From: JACRDV01 sp024860865 [NCBI: Methanobacteriota archaeon]
Lineage (GTDB): Archaea; JACRDV01
Reading direction: 5' to 3'
DNA: 24,428 nucleotides
NCBI GenBank assembly: GCA_024860865.1
Contig: JACRDV010000082.1
Location: 1-24,428 of the forward strand
Part shown: one piece after another, positions 3-19,854 of the stretch
Layout of the letters: each line of letters opens with the position of its first letter
Numbering within the stretch: the first letter of the stretch is position 1
Notes under the pieces: model-generated
Seen by the model: the letters and a program-made list of their open reading frames with translations, nothing else
Told to the model about the DNA's origin: nothing
Databases searched by the model: none
Made by a program: the position numbers and the translations under genes

Positions 3-95
3 GCGGCTAAATTCAAGGAAGATTTGAATGAGTTTAAAAAGCTTTTTGGGCAAGCAGCAAGTGAAAAACGTAAAATTTTGGCTCATCAAGAATGA
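3..95 (+). CDS. Possible C-terminal tail of an upstream gene (partial)
   Basis: Reading from base 3, an open frame rich in Lys, Glu and Phe runs 30 codons to a TGA at 93-95 and looks like the helical end of a protein. It would overlap the DUF99 gene by 68 bases if that gene starts at 28, or by 35 if it starts at the GTG at 61. A competing reading is the frame from base 1, which ends at a TGA at 25-27, directly before the ATG at 28. Only one of the two can be the real neighbour, and the window edge prevents a decision. Confidence 0.25.
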   Translation, partial: AAKFKEDLNEFKKLFGQAASEKRKILAHQE

Positions 96-669
96 AATCA
101 GAGCTATTGGAATTGATGATGCTCCTTTTGTTTCAAAGGCGCGTGGCCAAAAAGTAATTATTATTGGTGCAATTTTGCGCGGAGGGCAATGGGTCGAGGG
201 TGTTTTAAGAGGCAATATAACTATTGATGGTAATGATGCGACTGCCGAGCTTGCTAATATGATCAATAAATCAAAACATAAAGATCAGTTGAGAGTAATC
301 CTGCTCAATGGTATCACACTTGGTGGTTTTAACATAGTTAATATCAAGGAACTTTTTGAGAGCACGGGCATACCTGTAATAGTAATTACCAGAAAACACC
401 CTGAATTCAATAAAATTAAAAAAGCGCTTGAGAACTTCGATGACAAAGAAGCCCGCTGGAAAGCCATTTGTGCTGCGGGGCGCATTTATAAGGTAAAGTC
501 AAAAGCTGGTGAGAATCCAATTTATATGCAATTCATTGGGCTTGAAAAAAAGGATGCTGAAAAAATTGTTCAAATAACCTCTGGTAGAAGCATTGTTCCA
601 GAACCAATTAGAGTCGCCCATTTAATTGCCTCGGGAGTTGTCAAGGGCGAGTCGGTTGGGAGAGCGTAA
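28..669 (+). CDS. DUF99 family protein (endonuclease V-like fold)
   Basis: This 213-residue protein matches the archaeal DUF99 (UPF0215) family. The N-terminal block has the family signature IRAIGIDDAPF, followed by a strand-rich core and the segment GIPVIVITRKHPEF. Length is normal for the family. Known structural work places DUF99 in the endonuclease V-like RNase H fold, but I know of no firmly assigned activity, so a nucleic-acid role is inference. The ATG at 28 has a weak purine-rich stretch (AAGGAAG) before it. A GTG at 61, giving MKNVKFWLIKNEIRAIGIDD, is a plausible alternative start that would lose 11 residues. The next gene lies 127 bases downstream behind its own TATA-like element. 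Confidence 0.85.
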   Translation: MSLKSFLGKQQVKNVKFWLIKNEIRAIGIDDAPFVSKARGQKVIIIGAILRGGQWVEGVLRGNITIDGNDATAELANMINKSKHKDQLRVILLNGITLGGFNIVNIKELFESTGIPVIVITRKHPEFNKIKKALENFDDKEARWKAICAAGRIYKVKSKAGENPIYMQFIGLEKKDAEKIVQITSGRSIVPEPIRVAHLIASGVVKGESVGRA

Positions 670-2061: not shown

Positions 2062-3414
2062 ATGTCCTCTATACCTAATCTTTCCTATTTTCTAAGTCAA
2101 ATTAACTTACGAATTTACAACGGTTGCTTACGAATCGATAATGCTATAGAAGGTGTTCTTGACTTAAACTGGTTAGAAGAACATAAGCTTTTGTACCAGA
2201 AAATACCTGGGGCATATCCCTATGCCAAGAGACTTTTACTTTCAGGCCAAAATGGACAACCATGGGGGATAGTAAATCTTCGAGCTATAAATCCGGTTGA
2301 TCCTATAGATCATAGAAAGAGACATTCTAACATCTCCGAAACGTACTTAAAACCTCCTAATCAAATGAATGAGGGTAACTATAATTACATCACCTGTTTA
2401 AATACATACGACGCTTATGGTCAAAAAGTAAAATGCGTACCATTTATTATGCCAAATCCTGATTTTGGTATGTGCGCACAGGCATCGGTCTGGATATGCC
2501 TTAAAATCCTTGAAGGGAAAAGCCGAGGAGCTGTGCCTTCGAAAACAATCCCAGAGATCCAACATTTGGCAACCGGTTATCACTTTTCGGATGCACGTGG
2601 TCTTTTGTTTTCTCATATACGTAGACTCATAAAAATGAACAATTGCAATTCTTTTTATTACAATAATAAACTGATGGATCTCAGTGATGATGAAATGGTA
2701 AATATCATCTATGCTTATGTAGAATCTGGTCTTCCTGTCATAATAGGAATAGACGTAAGTAGAGTCAAATGGTGGGATAATCACCCTACAGGGTATCATT
2801 CAGTAGTGCTAATAGGGCATACAATTGATGGAGATACAGGAAAAGTTAATGGATTTATTCTTCATGATGAGAGCAAATACCCTTACCTTACTATAACGAG
2901 TGATGAACTGCTAAATGCATGGGGTCATAAAAAAGATAGCACTAATAGCCAAGTAATAAGGGAAGCAGTCGTGGGCGTGCCTCCTGTAGTACAAGTCGGG
3001 TATGAGAATGCTTTAAAATGGAGATACCTACTTGATTCGCTACATCTAGGAGGACTAATAAAAACAAACCAATTTCCTATCCGTCCTTTTCTTCTTAGTT
3101 ATACAGATGTTAACATTCTTTTTAAAGAATTTGAATTTAGCAATACAAATTTTAAGAAATTATTCTATCAGTACTTTAGTAAAATTCCACCAAAAGCATG
3201 GATGTGGCTACTTATCTTGCATGTTCATGAGAAACAAAGATTACAAAATGAGTTTGAGGGATTAATTCTATCGGATGCTACAGAAAACGATAATTTATTG
3301 TTTCTTGCAGTAGAAGAAAAGATTATTATCTACTTATCGTCGGATGATAATAAGTACTATCAAGTCATACTTCAAAATGGCGAGGTTAAAGAAGAAGTGC
3401 TAGAGATTAGGTGA
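2062..3414 (+). CDS. Papain/C39-like cysteine peptidase homologue (450 aa)
   Basis: This is a large protein with a central region resembling papain-fold C39-like peptidases. Cys138 lies in FGMCAQASVWICLKIL, which starts a helix as the nucleophile does in this fold. His246 lies in TGYHSVVLIGH, and Asp269 in GFILHDESKYPY could complete the triad. Between them, ESGLPVIIGID is also typical of the fold. Residues 1-130 and about 300-450 match nothing I know. There is no signal peptide or membrane segment, so it is probably cytoplasmic. I cannot tell what it cleaves, or whether it cleaves at all. Small genes of unknown function flank it on both sides, and the three together form an island between housekeeping genes. 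The assignment to the fold is fairly sure; the exact family is not. Confidence 0.65.
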   Translation: MSSIPNLSYFLSQINLRIYNGCLRIDNAIEGVLDLNWLEEHKLLYQKIPGAYPYAKRLLLSGQNGQPWGIVNLRAINPVDPIDHRKRHSNISETYLKPPNQMNEGNYNYITCLNTYDAYGQKVKCVPFIMPNPDFGMCAQASVWICLKILEGKSRGAVPSKTIPEIQHLATGYHFSDARGLLFSHIRRLIKMNNCNSFYYNNKLMDLSDDEMVNIIYAYVESGLPVIIGIDVSRVKWWDNHPTGYHSVVLIGHTIDGDTGKVNGFILHDESKYPYLTITSDELLNAWGHKKDSTNSQVIREAVVGVPPVVQVGYENALKWRYLLDSLHLGGLIKTNQFPIRPFLLSYTDVNILFKEFEFSNTNFKKLFYQYFSKIPPKAWMWLLILHVHEKQRLQNEFEGLILSDATENDNLLFLAVEEKIIIYLSSDDNKYYQVILQNGEVKEEVLEIR

Positions 3415-11252: not shown

Positions 11253-13625
11253 TTAAAGAAAATGATTTAAACTTGTTTGTGGAGTCGTGGGTTTACTCAT
11301 AATTCTATCTCTATTTTCGAAAATCGGTATGCCGTACTTACCATCAAATCCTGGAACATACTTTATATTTCCTTCTCTTACTCTTATTATTGCATTGACA
11401 ATTTTTTCATTTGTTACTTTTACTAGTTCTTCTTTAGAGACATTTAATAGAACATTGAGTTCATTCCCAAATTTCTCTATTAGTTTATCATGCTCTTGTA
11501 TAACTTTTTGTGAGTAAAGTTGATTAATGCCCATAGTATAAGAGATGATTTCATATAGCGGCAACAAAGTTTTGAATGGAATTGCGTCTTTAGGAACATA
11601 ACCTTCTGGTCTATCGGCTAATTCTTCTACTCTATGTAGCACTCCGATAGTTAGTTTTCTTCTGCATTTTGGGCAAATATTGCCGAACTTCTTTGCTTCT
11701 TGTGGGCTAAGGCTAATATTACAATTTCTATGCCCATCGAAGTGGTATTTCCCGTAACTTGGATTTGTCTCAATTGTAAACAAGAATCTCTTTCTATCTT
11801 TCTTTTTTATAGCATAATAAATTTCTTTATAGCTAATTTCTTCCAGCTCGAAAACATTTGCTTCTCTTCCTAAGCGCCAAGGGTGTGGAGAGTGTGAGTC
11901 TGAATTTGAAACTAATGTAAACTTATCTAAAGAAGATAACCGCCAGTTCATCGCAGGGTCTGAATTTCCACACCAAAGTGGAATGCCATTTCGACGAATA
12001 TAAATGACATGATTTGGAACTGCTGCACAAAACACCAAGCCATTATAATCGACCCAAGATTCTATGTAATTATATTTTTTTATTGTTGATGGCAAAGTTA
12101 TGGGTTTATTTTGCCTAATGAAATAGGCATCCCAAGAATTTTCTTTTTGTCTATATATTTTATTTTGAGAAGGAGAAAGAAAAGGCGTTCCTTTTTCCTT
12201 TTTTAGCTTATAATAAGCCGAAATCCCGATTTTTAAGGCTATTTCTTGCAAATCATCGCGTAGATGAATTGAGGTTGTGGTTGCCGATAAACCTTTTTTA
12301 TTTCGTCCATAAATATGTCCATCCCCTTTAAGATAATATTTGAGCAAAATTTCTAGCAGTTCTTTTGAAAGGGATTTTATATCAGAAGGAATAAATTTTA
12401 TATCAGAAGGAATAAATTTTTTAGAACAATTATTAAATTGTTTAAGATAATTAAATAGCTGATAGTTTCTCACTCTGAGGACATTACCCCATTGATAAGC
12501 CCTATAACCAAAACTTCTAAGAATTTGTTTCATTTCATTTAGTAAAGTTTTATTCTGATTACATACATAAACATCATAGCTACCATTTCCCCCATAGCTT
12601 ACCCATCCTTCTGCTAACCAAAAACCAAAAAATTTTAACCAAGATTTCATTGATAATTTTTTTTCTTTTTTAATACGAAATCCCGAATAATACCAATTTC
12701 CGTGTTTTATCTTCGAAGCGGGTAATACGAAATACTTCTCGCTTTTGCCCATCCAAATACCATCTTTCCTAAATCGTTTTGCCCTACCAAATAGATGCTG
12801 AGCTTCTTTCAAAATGAACGGTTTTGGGTTTCGGAAATCGCAAGGAGCATATAAAAGTTTATGATTAGGGGTGACTAATAAGTCGACTCTTTTTGTCTTT
12901 AACCTATACATCTTTCCTTTGTATCTATAGGTGAATATTCCTATTGGTTTTTGAAATTCAATCTTATCAGTTTTGAGATTTAGAGTACAAATTTGATCAG
13001 AATATTGTACTTTAGAGAATTTTTTCCATCCATTATTGGTTAAAACTTCCGTTTTTTCATCATAGCAAGAAAGTCCTGTTTCTAAAGAAAAAACATGCTT
13101 AGTTTGATCTTGATAGCAATCTTCTACAGAATCAAATCCAGATTTGCTTCCTAATATCGACCTCCAAGGGGTCCAGATATGGCTACTAGTTATCATAATG
13201 TCTTTTGAAATGCTAATCAGAATCTCAACTAGTTCTGGTGCAGATATATTGAGGTTAGGTCTTCCATCGATACTGAGATTTCCATACTTGGATAAAGTTT
13301 CATTTATCTGCTCAACAATTTCAAAGGATGGCGCATGAATTAAATGATGGATATTTTTAATCTTTCCTTCATACTCAAAAATAGTCCCAATTTCGGTTGT
13401 AAGCGCGAACCAAATGCCGTTATATTTAAATAAACTAGTTCCTTCTATTGATTCTAACTTTTCTTTTAATTCAGCCAACCAGTTTGGAAACGTAAAATCC
13501 GATGTTCCTAGTAAGTTTAGTCCTTTGGTTTTTGCACCAGCTGCAAGTCCTTCCAAATTCATTTTTTGACTTGTTGCTCTTGAATACAAAGAGTGAACGT
13601 GAAAGTCCCCAATCACTAATACCAA
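11253..13625 (-). CDS. endQ: Endonuclease Q (PHP-domain deaminated-base endonuclease) with intein
   Basis: EndoQ nicks DNA 5' of deaminated bases such as uracil and hypoxanthine. Without the intein (residues 187-554) the two exteins join to 422 residues, the usual EndoQ length. PHP-domain metal ligands are visible: DFHVHS (His9, His11), TTEIG (Glu78), IHHLIHAPS, SSHIWTPW and, after the intein, NSDSHSPHPW. A zinc site follows (Cys635, Cys651, Cys654), then the family block GVLHRVEELADRPEGY. The last eight residues, QTSLNHFL, form a canonical PCNA-binding motif. The start is TTG at 13625, with AGGTGAG (13631-13637 on the minus strand) 5 bases upstream. The gene converges on the PAC2 gene and stands alone on the minus strand. 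Confidence 0.93.
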   Translation of the reverse strand: MVLVIGDFHVHSLYSRATSQKMNLEGLAAGAKTKGLNLLGTSDFTFPNWLAELKEKLESIEGTSLFKYNGIWFALTTEIGTIFEYEGKIKNIHHLIHAPSFEIVEQINETLSKYGNLSIDGRPNLNISAPELVEILISISKDIMITSSHIWTPWRSILGSKSGFDSVEDCYQDQTKHVFSLETGLSCYDEKTEVLTNNGWKKFSKVQYSDQICTLNLKTDKIEFQKPIGIFTYRYKGKMYRLKTKRVDLLVTPNHKLLYAPCDFRNPKPFILKEAQHLFGRAKRFRKDGIWMGKSEKYFVLPASKIKHGNWYYSGFRIKKEKKLSMKSWLKFFGFWLAEGWVSYGGNGSYDVYVCNQNKTLLNEMKQILRSFGYRAYQWGNVLRVRNYQLFNYLKQFNNCSKKFIPSDIKFIPSDIKSLSKELLEILLKYYLKGDGHIYGRNKKGLSATTTSIHLRDDLQEIALKIGISAYYKLKKEKGTPFLSPSQNKIYRQKENSWDAYFIRQNKPITLPSTIKKYNYIESWVDYNGLVFCAAVPNHVIYIRRNGIPLWCGNSDPAMNWRLSSLDKFTLVSNSDSHSPHPWRLGREANVFELEEISYKEIYYAIKKKDRKRFLFTIETNPSYGKYHFDGHRNCNISLSPQEAKKFGNICPKCRRKLTIGVLHRVEELADRPEGYVPKDAIPFKTLLPLYEIISYTMGINQLYSQKVIQEHDKLIEKFGNELNVLLNVSKEELVKVTNEKIVNAIIRVREGNIKYVPGFDGKYGIPIFENRDRIMSKPTTPQTSLNHFL
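11256..11279 (-). other. PCNA-interacting peptide (PIP box) at the EndoQ C-terminus
   Basis: The final eight codons read QTSLNHFL, which fits the PIP consensus Q-x-x-hydrophobic-x-x-aromatic-aromatic/hydrophobic. It lies at the extreme C-terminus, the usual place. EndoQ of Thermococcales is known to bind PCNA, and the pcn gene is in this window at 5165. Confidence 0.8.
11964..13067 (-). mobile_element. Intein with LAGLIDADG homing endonuclease in endQ (368 aa)
   Basis: The insert begins at Cys187 of the precursor (CYDEKTEVLTNNGWKKF, splicing block A) and ends at Asn554, with Ser555 as the first residue after it. Block B is VDLLVTPNHKLL with the T-x-x-H pattern, and block F is PNHVIYIRRNG. 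The end is LWCGN, so Gly replaces the usual penultimate His. Two LAGLIDADG motifs, FFGFWLAEGWV (Glu153 of the intein) and LLKYYLKGDGHIYG (Asp249), keep their acidic residues, so the endonuclease may be active. Removing the insert restores ETGLS followed by SDPAMNWRL, which reads as unbroken EndoQ sequence. The element is in frame and free of stops. Confidence 0.95.
12375..12416 (-). repeat. Perfect 21-bp tandem duplication inside the intein
   Basis: Two exact head-to-tail copies (12375-12395 and 12396-12416) encode the seven residues FIPSDIK twice, giving KKFIPSDIKFIPSDIKSL between the two LAGLIDADG motifs. The copies are identical at the base level, which points to a recent slippage event. 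The reading frame is kept. Confidence 0.95.
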
Positions 13626-14055
13626 GCTAACTCACCTTATACGAAATTTTTTACCGATTTTACTAACCATACTGACTTGTTGATCTACATGAGCACATTT
13701 TAGATGTTTTTGAACAGTATATGCAGTCTCAGCTCGTTTGCTATAATTTTGCCGTGAAATGACCAAAATTAAACCGCAGCATTTGAAAATCAGCAATTAT
13801 TCTCATTTACTCCCTTATTTTCTTTCATTGGTTGTTCTCATTTTCTTGAATGTTTCCGTTTTATTTAAGCAAATTTATTACTTATTTGTTTTTAGTAATT
13901 TTCAATAGGTATAAAAAGTAATAAATAATGAAAATCGTATGCCAATAAATCCAAGCTCTCAGGAAAATCATAATATATAACCAAGAATGATTCTCTAGCA
14001 TAAATTGAACGAAATTTGTTTTCAAAAAGTCCTGAGCTTTCAAACAGTGAGAGAA
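13626..14055. other. 430-base divergent intergenic region
   Basis: The region separates the minus-strand endQ gene from the plus-strand ferredoxin gene. Next to endQ it holds the minus-strand ribosome site AGGTGAG and an AT-rich stretch at about 13645-13655 that may be its TATA box. Towards the ferredoxin gene there is a TATA-like element at 13971-13980. Between them I see only AT-rich sequence with T runs, with no tRNA and no open frame of useful length. Confidence 0.6.
13971..13980 (+). promoter_or_regulatory. TATA box of the ferredoxin-GGR operon
   Basis: TAATATATAA would start transcription near 14003-14006. This gives a leader of about 50 bases before the ferredoxin ATG at 14056. It also falls exactly where a leaderless start at the TTG at 14005 would need it, so an N-terminally longer ferredoxin is possible. 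Confidence 0.5.
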
Positions 14056-15624: not shown

Positions 15625-16701
15625 ATGCCTAGTGAATTTAAGGAACTTCCTGAAGAAGAATATTTAGAGATTTATTCTAGGCAAATAGTTCTCAAGGATA
15701 TAAACTATGAAGGCCAGTTGAAACTTAGAAATGCTAAGGTTTGTATAGTGGGGCTAGGAGGCCTAGGCAGTCCAGCAGCAATTCAGCTGACAGGTATGGG
15801 TGTTGGACATCTACGTCTTGTTGACAGAGACATTGTTGAACGAACTGATTTGCATAGGCAATATCTTTATGGTGTAAATGTCCTTGGATATCCTAAAGTT
15901 GAAGCTGCTGCGAAGAGATTAAATGATTTAAATCCAGGCGTAAAGATAGAACCTTTGCCAATTTATTTAACAGCATACAATGTTGAGAGCATTATAAAAG
16001 GAATGGATGTTGTTGTTGACGGTTTAGATACAATATAACCCCGTTACATTATAAACAGAGCATGTGTCAAACATAGAATACCTTATGTTTTTGGAGCAGC
16101 TCTTGAGGCTTTTGGGAATGTGTCTACAATAATTCCCTATAAAACACCTTGCCTTGAGTGCCATTACCGCGATCTTAAGAATAGAATGTTTCCAACTTGT
16201 GCTGTAGCTGGAGTTCACCCTCCTATAGTTAACATAATCTCGAGTTTAGAGGTATCTGAAGCAGTTAGGATAATCACAGGTAAAAATCCAAACTTAATGA
16301 ATAAAATGCTTTTTTGTGACCTTAGGAATCTTGGATTTGATATAGTACAAATTCACCGCAGAGAAGACTGCCCCGTTTGTGGGCTCAAACCCATCGAGAA
16401 AACCATTAAGCACGAAGTTATTGAAGAAATTTGTGGAAGGGGTGGGAAAAGAACATTTGTAGTTGCACCAAGAGAAAACTTAGAATTAAACATGAATACT
16501 CTATATGAAGTTTTAAAAACAAAAGGGTACATTAGAGTGAGAGCTAATCTTGGCATAAATATGGCCTATAATCAAAAAGCGATTAGCATTCTTAAAAGTG
16601 GCGTTATGATAGCAAAAGGCTTCGATGAAAGAGAAGAAGTTCTTAAAATTTACAAAAATATAATAGAAAACTTGGGTATCCCTTGGACGCGTGTAGAATA
16701 A
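15625..16701 (+). pseudogene. ThiF/MoeB/HesA-type E1-like adenylyltransferase interrupted by in-frame TAA
   Basis: E1-like enzymes adenylate the C-terminal Gly-Gly of MoaD/ThiS-type sulfur carriers. The reading frame covers 358 codons plus stop, but codon 138 (16036-16038) is TAA. On both sides the protein reads as continuous family sequence: VVVDGLDTI, stop, PRYIINRACVKHRIPYVFGA. The N-terminal part has the ATP-binding VGLGGLGSPAA and the block VERTDLHRQYLY. The C-terminal part has zinc cysteines in PCLECHYR and CPVCG, the segment CAVAGVHPPIVNIISSLE, and an extra domain of about 90 residues. There is no frameshift. It could be a fresh pseudogene, an assembly error, two separately translated parts (GTG at 16120) or readthrough. 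A MoaD-like gene with an intact Gly-Gly tail lies downstream in the same operon. Confidence 0.85.
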
Positions 16702-19228: not shown

Positions 19229-19519
19229 TTGGCTACAGAAAGTGATATTTTGAGTCAATTTGATGCAGATGAAGCTGCATATTGGAGCATGAGGGAGGAG
19301 CTATTAAAAGAGTTTAAGGGCAAGTGGGTAGCTGTGCACAATAGAAAAGTTGTCGCTTCAGGAAATAACCAAAGTGAAGTAATTAAAAGCGCGTATGAGG
19401 TTTTAGGCAAATCACCGTTTTATCTCAATTGTGTGGGCGAGGAGGACAAAGTTGGTAAGCGGGTATATAGATGTTTAGCGGCTTTGATAATTCAGTTGCT
19501 CCACCGTTCCCATGGCTAA
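19229..19519 (+). CDS. DUF5678-like small protein
   Basis: The 96-residue protein carries the pattern of DUF5678: FKGKWVAVHNRKVVASGNNQ, followed by a helix and SPFYLNCVGEED. Such domains are often found beside retropepsin-like proteases in archaea; their job is not known to me. The start is TTG at 19229 with AAAGGGAT upstream. After VYR (about residue 81) the sequence turns into a tail (CLAALIIQLLHRSHG) that does not look conserved, and this tail overlaps the protease gene by 49 bases. The real functional end may therefore be near residue 80, or the two genes may be fused in relatives. Confidence 0.65.
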   Translation: MATESDILSQFDADEAAYWSMREELLKEFKGKWVAVHNRKVVASGNNQSEVIKSAYEVLGKSPFYLNCVGEEDKVGKRVYRCLAALIIQLLHRSHG

Positions 19520-19854
19520 TGACGACACTTACAAATCCTTCAAAAACAAGCGAGCAAAAAGTTAAGGGATATATTGATACTGGTAGCGATGGAAGCGCGA
19601 TACCCATTAAATTAGGTCAGGATCTTGGTCTTTTCAAATACCCAATTGCTCGTGCCGAAATAAGCGGGCTTGGTGGAAAGCTAGAACAAAGAATCCTATA
19701 CGGTCTTGTCATAGAAATTGCTGGACAAGACGTAGCTATAGCTGTAGATATCCGTGATGATTTAGATTTTGTGCTTTTAGGGCGAGACATCCTGCAATAT
19801 TTTTCGCTTATGATTGATTGGAAACAGAGAATTGTAAGAATTAAGGATCCTTGA
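19471..19854 (+). CDS. Retropepsin-like aspartic protease
   Basis: This is a 127-residue protein with the aspartic protease signature YIDTGSDGSAIPIKLG (Asp36-Thr-Gly-Ser) and the second half-site strand DFVLLGRDILQYFSLMIDW. One catalytic Asp per chain means it would act as a homodimer, as retroviral protease does. There is no signal peptide or membrane segment, and no natural substrate is known. The ATG at 19471 comes directly after an in-frame TAG, so it is the earliest possible start; the ribosome site is poor, and the start lies inside the DUF5678 gene in another frame. Co-translation with DUF5678 is likely, and the DUF5678 protein may be its partner or substrate. Confidence 0.75.
   Translation: MFSGFDNSVAPPFPWLMTTLTNPSKTSEQKVKGYIDTGSDGSAIPIKLGQDLGLFKYPIARAEISGLGGKLEQRILYGLVIEIAGQDVAIAVDIRDDLDFVLLGRDILQYFSLMIDWKQRIVRIKDP

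What the first reader, a model, noticed from the sequence alone, without database searches (positions are those of the whole stretch)
11964..13067. Intein with intact LAGLIDADG endonuclease inside endonuclease Q
The insert starts with Cys and ends with Asn before a +1 Ser. It has recognisable splicing blocks A, B and F and two LAGLIDADG motifs with their acidic residues. Removing 368 residues restores a 422-residue EndoQ across a conserved stretch (ETGLS joined to SDPAMNWRL). I do not recall EndoQ as an intein host, though I cannot check. A mobile DNA cutter inside a DNA-repair nuclease is unusual in itself. The penultimate residue is Gly instead of His, which may slow C-terminal cleavage.
Basis: partly seen in the sequence, partly recalled or inferred. 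Interest (0 to 1): 0.8.

Follow-up and report, generated by a model that had tools for sequence, protein, structure and literature searches.

The report
Mobile self-splicing intein in EndoQ
A self-removing protein segment that carries its own DNA-cutting enzyme sits inside a DNA-repair enzyme of an archaeon, and close relatives sit at the same spot in unrelated bacteria, which suggests that it jumps between very distant microbes.

Summary
Confirmed. The 790-codon ORF at 11253-13625(-) is an endonuclease Q (EndoQ) precursor with an exact in-frame 368-residue LAGLIDADG intein (11964-13067) between ETGLS and SDPAMNWRL. Eight EndoQs without it align with no gap at the join. The predicted fold is a complete HINT plus LAGLIDADG intein (pLDDT 88.7; best match TliVMA intein, Z 26.9). 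The penultimate Gly is in 24 of 24 aligned relatives, so it is a clade trait.

The larger result is mobility. Seven bacterial EndoQs (five from the phylum of an Omnitrophota MAG, one Wolfebacteria, one Roizmanbacteria) hold a homologous intein at the same site. In three measured pairs inteins are 66-69% identical to the window's, spliced hosts 43-50%. The host tree puts the window with archaea, the seven with bacteria; one clade of all eight hosts is rejected (p 1.3e-36), while the inteins form one clade (100/100). So the intein apparently crossed domains without its host gene.

EndoQ is not a new intein host: a second site (PAH|C) carries another intein in five EndoQs, and the family model TIGR00375 holds intein signal. 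Splicing and cutting are inferred.

The parts
11253..13625 (-). EndoQ precursor CDS (790 aa, TTG start, stop included)
   Evidence: TIGR00375 E 3.1e-56, below its cut-off; PfuEndoQ E 2.1e-60
13631..13638 (-). Shine-Dalgarno-like AAGGTGAG, five bases before the TTG start
   Evidence: sequence printed; function inferred
13068..13625 (-). N-extein, EndoQ residues 1-186, ending ETGLS
11964..13067 (-). intein, 368 aa, Cys1 to Asn368
13029..13067 (-). block A, CYDEKTEVLTNNG (Cys1 nucleophile)
   Evidence: Cys1 in 8 of 8 same-site inteins; invariant in 24 of 24
12861..12872 (-). block B, TPNH (Thr66, His69)
   Evidence: 8 of 8 same-site inteins
12603..12629 (-). first LAGLIDADG motif, FGFWLAEGW (acidic E153)
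   Evidence: E in 8 of 8
12374..12420 (-). 21-nt tandem duplication (second copy of KFIPSDI), absent from the other seven same-site inteins
   Evidence: overlaps the pLDDT<50 segment 214-220 of the intein model
12312..12338 (-). second LAGLIDADG motif, YYLKGDGHI (acidic D249)
   Evidence: D in 8 of 8
11964..12035 (-). blocks F and G, VFCAAVPNHVIYIRRNGIPLWCGN (penultimate Gly, terminal Asn)
   Evidence: G-N in 24 of 24; His353 in 7 of 8 same-site inteins, Asn in L165
11253..11963 (-). C-extein, EndoQ residues 555-790 (+1 Ser) and stop codon

Best explanation
It is a class 1-like, endonuclease-bearing intein in EndoQ. The precursor is translated whole. The HINT domain then splices: Cys1 takes the N-extein as a thioester, Ser+1 accepts it, and Asn368 cyclises to free the intein, leaving 422-residue EndoQ. 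The insert lies between stretches of the PHP metal site (H149 on one side, D576/H578 on the other; roles by analogy), so unspliced precursor should be inactive; the assembly shows no second EndoQ, so splicing is presumably needed. At the DNA level the LAGLIDADG domain presumably cuts endoQ alleles without the intein across GAAACAGGACTTTCT|TCAGACCCTGCGATG, and recombination copies the intein in. This site encodes highly conserved residues, so its DNA stays recognisable between distant lineages, and the element has moved between bacterial (Omnitrophota-type) and archaeal EndoQ genes. Shown: anatomy, clean join, predicted fold, same-site relatives, conflict of trees. Inferred: splicing, cutting, the exact target, loss of activity in the precursor, and direction (bacteria to archaeon).
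For: Clean join against 8 EndoQs without the insert. Key splice and endonuclease residues kept in 8 of 8 same-site inteins, except His353 (7 of 8) and Cys347 (7 of 8). AlphaFold model pLDDT 88.7, pTM 0.88. Foldseek top rows are TliVMA and PhoVMA inteins, PI-SceI, 2cw7 and PI-PfuI; VIA-align Z 26.9, 312 residues, rmsd 4.0 to 7qsu. Same-site inteins in L043-L045 and in 5 of 384 genomes of the phylum of L043's genome, that genome included. Intein identity 66-69% against spliced-extein identity 43-50% in the three window pairs. Extein tree: the seven sit in a 29-row clade (SH-aLRT 98) whose named rows are bacterial, the window among archaeal EndoQs. AU test: one clade of 8 hosts rejected, dlnL 278, p 1.3e-36; inteins one clade 100/100, window nested 96/98, bacterial seven as a clade p 0.026. 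L044 lies beside EF-P, MnmA and ComEC-like genes, which are bacterial types (read by eye), so it is not a misbinned archaeal contig. dN 0.11-0.28 with dS near or past saturation; dN/dS at most 0.18 where computable.
Against: No biochemistry. The window copy alone has a 7-residue duplication in the endonuclease part, which may weaken cutting. Intein_splicing is below its Pfam cut-off. The window's exact place among archaeal EndoQs is weakly supported (no starred set holds it); a tree with the bacterial inteins apart from the window's is rejected only at p 0.026. Target DNA (central 30 nt) is no more alike between occupied sites than to empty ones: 27, 23 and 21 of 30 for L043, L044 and L045, against a median of 22 and a best of 28 for 66 loci with the site empty. 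The precursor model was poor over the intein (mean pLDDT 62.6), so splice-site geometry in place is untested. L043's neighbours (pyrimidine genes, by eye) do not tell the domain.
Confidence: 0.88

Rival explanations
1. The whole EndoQ gene with its intein was passed between bacteria and the archaeon; the intein did not move by itself.
For: Close inteins at exactly the same site in both domains.
Against: Exteins are only 43-50% identical where inteins are 66-69%; the window extein groups with archaea and the other seven with bacteria; one clade of hosts rejected at p 1.3e-36.
Confidence: 0.04
2. The intein still splices, but in this archaeon the endonuclease is decaying (post-homing stage), the 21-nt duplication being the first lesion.
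For: The duplication is unique to the window among 8 same-site inteins and overlaps the only pLDDT<50 segment within the endonuclease part. L167 has GDSH in place of GDGH, so relatives vary too.
Against: Frame, both acidic residues and the fold are kept; the duplication lies in a loop ahead of the second LAGLIDADG helix.
Confidence: 0.3
3. The insert is retained as a permanent extra domain of EndoQ and never spliced out.
For: Penultimate His is absent, and splicing is unproven here.
Against: It splits invariant catalytic-domain sequence; all splicing nucleophiles are kept; the same Gly-Asn ending occurs in 24 of 24 aligned inteins from several hosts; splicing without the penultimate His is on record (Chen et al. 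2000, seen only as a title in the reference list of PMC4031507).
Confidence: 0.04
4. Splicing is conditional (redox, temperature, metal or DNA damage) and gates EndoQ activity.
For: The insert splits the PHP catalytic part, and Cys1 with Cys366 (8 of 8 same-site inteins) could form a redox pair; stress-responsive splicing is described for mycobacterial DnaB inteins (PMC6195587, abstract in listing).
Against: No direct evidence; patchy presence (5 of 384 genomes in the richest phylum sampled) fits a parasite better than a regulator.
Confidence: 0.1

Closest known systems
TliVMA / PhoVMA inteins and PI-SceI (LAGLIDADG inteins)
   Same: HINT splicing domain with an inserted two-motif LAGLIDADG endonuclease; full-length structural match (7qsu Z 26.9, 312 aligned).
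   Different: Only 13-18% identity; host is EndoQ and not V-ATPase; ends Gly-Asn, where the VMA inteins end His-Asn (recalled).
Inteins of the same sequence family in anaerobic ribonucleotide reductase (L016), MCM (L027), a PurD-like protein (L168) and viral proteins (L123-L142)
   Same: 29-39% identity over the full length in A2, shared blocks and the (W/F)xGN ending (L168 35%).
   Different: Other hosts and sites; the 20 of them put in the intein tree fall outside the EndoQ-site clade (100/100).
Second-site EndoQ inteins (PAH|C..HN|C), in L004, L031, L039, L094, L144; recalled as the Mja Hyp-1 / MJ0043 kind
   Same: Same host protein, LAGLIDADG intein at the catalytic part; also in both archaeal and bacterial genomes.
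   Different: Other insertion site (right after H149), His-Asn end and +1 Cys in the 4 of 5 that are complete (L039 runs off its contig); the L031 one is 20% identical to the window intein (E 4e-6), the others were not compared.

Membership tests
Class 1 LAGLIDADG intein | N-terminal nucleophile Cys1 (or Ser), terminal Asn, +1 Cys/Ser/Thr | tested here: met
   Cys1, Asn368, Ser+1; Cys1 and Asn in 8 of 8 same-site inteins; Ser+1 in all eight ORFs
Class 1 LAGLIDADG intein | Block B Thr-x-x-His | tested here: met
   TPNH 66-69, 8 of 8
Class 1 LAGLIDADG intein | HINT fold | tested here: met
   predicted model; (many inteins and Hedgehog among the rows)
Class 1 LAGLIDADG intein | Two LAGLIDADG motifs with acidic residues | tested here: met
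   E153 and D249 in 8 of 8; Pfam LAGLIDADG_3 50.7 bits
Class 1 LAGLIDADG intein | Penultimate His (common assisting residue, not defining) | tested here: not met
   Gly instead; Gly in 24 of 24 aligned relatives. Listed among assisting residues in PMC4031507 (passage)
Class 1 LAGLIDADG intein | In-frame insertion whose removal restores the host | tested here: met
   clean join against 8 EndoQs without the insert
Class 1 LAGLIDADG intein | Protein splicing and site-specific DNA cutting | not testable with these tools
   needs bench work
Class 2 or class 3 intein | No Cys1/Ser1 at the N-terminus | tested here: not met
   Cys1 present
Endonuclease Q (host) | PHP catalytic domain and Zn-binding domain similar to PfuEndoQ over the full length | tested here: met
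   H9, H11, E78, H93, H149, D576, H578 and C635, C651, C654 invariant in 9 rows. TIGR00375 is matched below its curated cut-off, as it is by L002 and L006
Endonuclease Q (host) | Cleavage 5' of dU, hypoxanthine or AP sites | not testable with these tools
   none

The most novel reading that the evidence does not exclude
EndoQ carries two independent intein sites, both occupied in Archaea and in Bacteria, and the site found here belongs to an element that is still homing across the domain boundary through a conserved target of about 30 bp, using a penultimate-Gly splicing subclass whose conditional splicing might switch DNA-deamination repair on and off.
Probability: 0.12. Interest if true: 0.7.

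Novelty: new member of a known kind. Interest (0 to 1): 0.42.

Why it matters
The intein tree and the host tree disagree across the Bacteria-Archaea divide, so this looks like a homing element that crossed domains without its host gene. Empty and occupied sites are both in hand, so homing and splicing can be tested directly. The clade ending in Gly-Asn, found in viruses, archaea and bacteria, offers natural material for how splicing works without the usual penultimate His. The NCBIfam model for EndoQ also carries intein signal, which matters for annotation.

Tried and rejected
Whole-gene transfer: rejected by the tree comparison. Misbinning of the bacterial contigs: not supported for L044, whose neighbours are bacterial types by eye. 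L043's neighbours (pyrimidine genes) and L045's do not tell the domain; there the case rests on the record titles and on their EndoQs grouping with bacterial rows. Viral EndoQ: 91 pattern matches in viral contigs, none a relative. Phage and plasmid carriers of the intein: only distant hits, about 33% at best, in 59 phage records and 1 plasmid record. Second copy in the window's assembly: none found. More archaeal phyla for this intein: phylum of G047, 1 of 156 at E up to 1e-50, a 35% intein in a PurD-like host; phyla of G008 and G065, 0 of 19 and 0 of 23 at E up to 1e-80 (the tool warns that such empty answers show little). Codon tests: dS mostly saturated, only bounds. Precursor structure: poor over the intein, not used. 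Literature: 'endonuclease Q' + 'intein' 2 papers, passages unrelated to an EndoQ intein; 'intein' + 'TIGR00375' 0; 'MJ0043' 1 irrelevant paper, listing only; 'intein' + 'Omnitrophica' 0; 'intein' + 'PHP domain' + 'archaea' 1, listing only, on DNA polymerase III; 'intein' + 'Patescibacteria' 2, listing only; general intein and EndoQ searches, listings only, apart from passages of PMC11354406 (gave no catalytic residue numbers), PMC5874633 and PMC4031507. The MJ0043 / Mja Hyp-1 statement is recall that no call confirmed; InBase was not searchable.

Dropped rows and limits: L094 (second-site intein) and L057 (EndoQ in two frames) were left out of the 91-row extein tree. The extein AU test used 39 of these 91 rows chosen by hand, after the tree had been seen. 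A2 took 18 of the 20 viral loci; L126 and L133, near copies of L125 and L132, were left out and end Gly-Asn too. These viral loci were found with the window intein as query. In one search, 66 of 80 loci had the motif with enough flank and the site empty.

Full report
Observation. The minus-strand ORF 11253-13625 (790 aa, TTG start with AAGGTGAG upstream) matches endonuclease Q on both sides of residues 187-554: PfuEndoQ 5zb8 at E 2.1e-60 in two stretches, TIGR00375 at E 3.1e-56 but below its curated cut-off. In an alignment with eight EndoQs that lack the insert, it is a single clean gap between GLS/GMS and SDP, and the flanking residues are among the invariant ones. The assembly, 92% complete, shows no other EndoQ and no other copy of the intein.

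Anatomy. Cys1, TPNH in block B, F-block Cys347 and His353, Gly367-Asn368 and Ser+1 are present, and the LAGLIDADG motifs keep E153 and D249. AlphaFold gives a confident model of the whole intein (pLDDT 88.7, pTM 0.88). Foldseek and VIA-align put it with VMA inteins, PI-SceI and PI-PfuI over the full length and with I-DmoI over the endonuclease part (7qsu Z 26.9, rmsd 4.0, 312 aligned). Profile scores of the splicing part alone are weak. A 21-nt tandem duplication adds a second KFIPSDI in the endonuclease. It is absent from the seven same-site relatives and overlaps a low-confidence loop of the model (residues 214-220).

The penultimate Gly. In alignment A2 of 24 inteins (window, three bacterial EndoQs, anaerobic ribonucleotide reductase, MCM, 18 of the 20 viral loci) the last two residues are Gly-Asn in 24 of 24. 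PMC4031507 lists the penultimate His among assisting residues and cites work on splicing without it (passage and reference list). I conclude that Gly is an old trait of this clade, with unknown compensation, and not a local defect.

Relatives at the same site. Three of 80 carry an intein at exactly this site: L043 Omnitrophota, L044 Wolfebacteria, L045 Roizmanbacteria. One of 80, L094, carries another intein at another site. Of 384 genomes of the phylum of L043's genome, 5 have the intein at 68-72% identity, one of them L043's own; the other four ORFs were read and are EndoQ with the same junction. Of 379 genomes of the phylum of L044's genome, 97 had matches at E up to 1e-35, and in the cut list, best first, only L044's own genome shows this intein. 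Among the 101 genomes, 70 of which matched the precursor somewhere, only the window's own shows it in the cut list.

Mobility. The window intein is 69.0, 65.9 and 66.7% identical to those of L043, L044 and L045; the spliced exteins are 49.5, 49.9 and 43.0% identical. In the 91-row extein tree the seven bacterial hosts lie in a 29-row clade (SH-aLRT 98) whose named rows are Omnitrophota, Patescibacteria-type and other bacteria, while the window lies among Aenigmatarchaeota, Nitrososphaerota and Thermoproteota EndoQs, with weak support for its exact place. Holding the eight hosts together costs 278 log-likelihood units (p 1.3e-36; 39 rows). The eight inteins form a clade at 100/100 with the window nested at 96/98; making the bacterial seven a clade is rejected only mildly (p 0.026). 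The simplest reading is that the intein moved between domains by itself. Bacteria to archaeon is the likelier direction, though an unsampled donor is possible. Over the central 30 nt of the site the window is identical to L043, L044 and L045 at 27, 23 and 21 positions, and to 66 loci with the site empty at a median of 22, best 28. So the target is conserved enough to be recognisable across lineages, but occupied sites are not specially alike. dN of 0.11-0.28 against mostly saturated dS suggests purifying selection on both domains.

EndoQ as an intein host. A second site, right after the conserved H149 (PAH|C), holds a different intein in L004, L031, L039 (cut by its contig end), L094 and L144, again in archaeal and bacterial genomes. 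The L031 one is 20% identical to the window intein (E 4e-6). The curated model TIGR00375 matches the L031 intein (with one extein residue) at 155 bits over profile positions 1-134. That is more than the true N-extein of the same protein scores over the same positions (47 bits); the C-extein scores 487 bits from position 135. The simplest reading is that an intein-bearing EndoQ was among the sequences used to build the model. From recall this would be M. jannaschii MJ0043. EndoQ with an intein is thus probably not new; the site used here I could not find described.

Mechanism and limits. Splicing by the class 1 route, an inactive precursor, and homing through a LAGLIDADG cut are inferences from anatomy and family knowledge. 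Both sites lie in the PHP catalytic part: the insert separates H149 from D576/H578, and in the 7k30/7k31 entries of PfuEndoQ the residue matching D576 is Asn where 5zb8 has Asp (alignments), which I read as a catalytic mutant. [quoted passage not shown] The window's organism is an unnamed archaeon by its genes (PCNA, both primase subunits, eIF2-alpha, Endo_dU, TFIIS-like zinc ribbon), alone in its phylum in the held set.

Verdict. A real intein of a known kind at an apparently undescribed site of a host that other inteins also use, with clear evidence of transfer between domains. Interest is moderate.

Noticed in passing
L031:1419-2597 (protein P0004) and NCBIfam TIGR00375: The EndoQ family model TIGR00375 matches an EndoQ intein almost alone with 155 bits at profile positions 1-134, more than the real N-extein of the same protein (47 bits), so the model appears to contain intein sequence.
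   Followed up: partly
15625-16701 (+): A MoeB/ThiF-like gene is split by one in-frame TAA at 16036-16038; the two halves match consecutive parts of the family. Nonsense mutation or sequencing error.
   Followed up: partly
28-669 (+): An Endo_dU family protein (PF01949, E 8.1e-63) lies in the same window as EndoQ, so two candidate deaminated-base endonucleases are within 14 kb.
   Followed up: no
19471-19854 (+): A small clan AA (retropepsin-like) aspartic protease candidate, TIGR03698 at E 2.2e-9 but below its cut-off.
   Followed up: no
2062-3414 (+): A 450-aa ORF without a convincing family (UxuA E 0.0005, below cut-off; none); by eye it resembles a C39-like cysteine protease.
   Followed up: no
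L123-L142 (viral contigs): Inteins of the same Gly-Asn family sit in viral proteins, many at similar small-residue|..N|SH sites; of eight host ORFs scanned, one matched glycosyltransferases, one an ATP-dependent DNA ligase domain, one DUF2341, and five nothing but LAGLIDADG.
   Followed up: partly
L169 (Wolfebacteria genome G102, contig 17): An ORF that reads by eye as anaerobic ribonucleotide reductase, in the genome that also has the EndoQ intein, carries three intein-like inserts, one of the same Gly-Asn family at 38% identity.
   Followed up: partly
L032 and L033 (ends of two contigs of G008): A gene that reads by eye as PurD-like, with an intein of the same family, is broken across two contig ends.
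   Followed up: no
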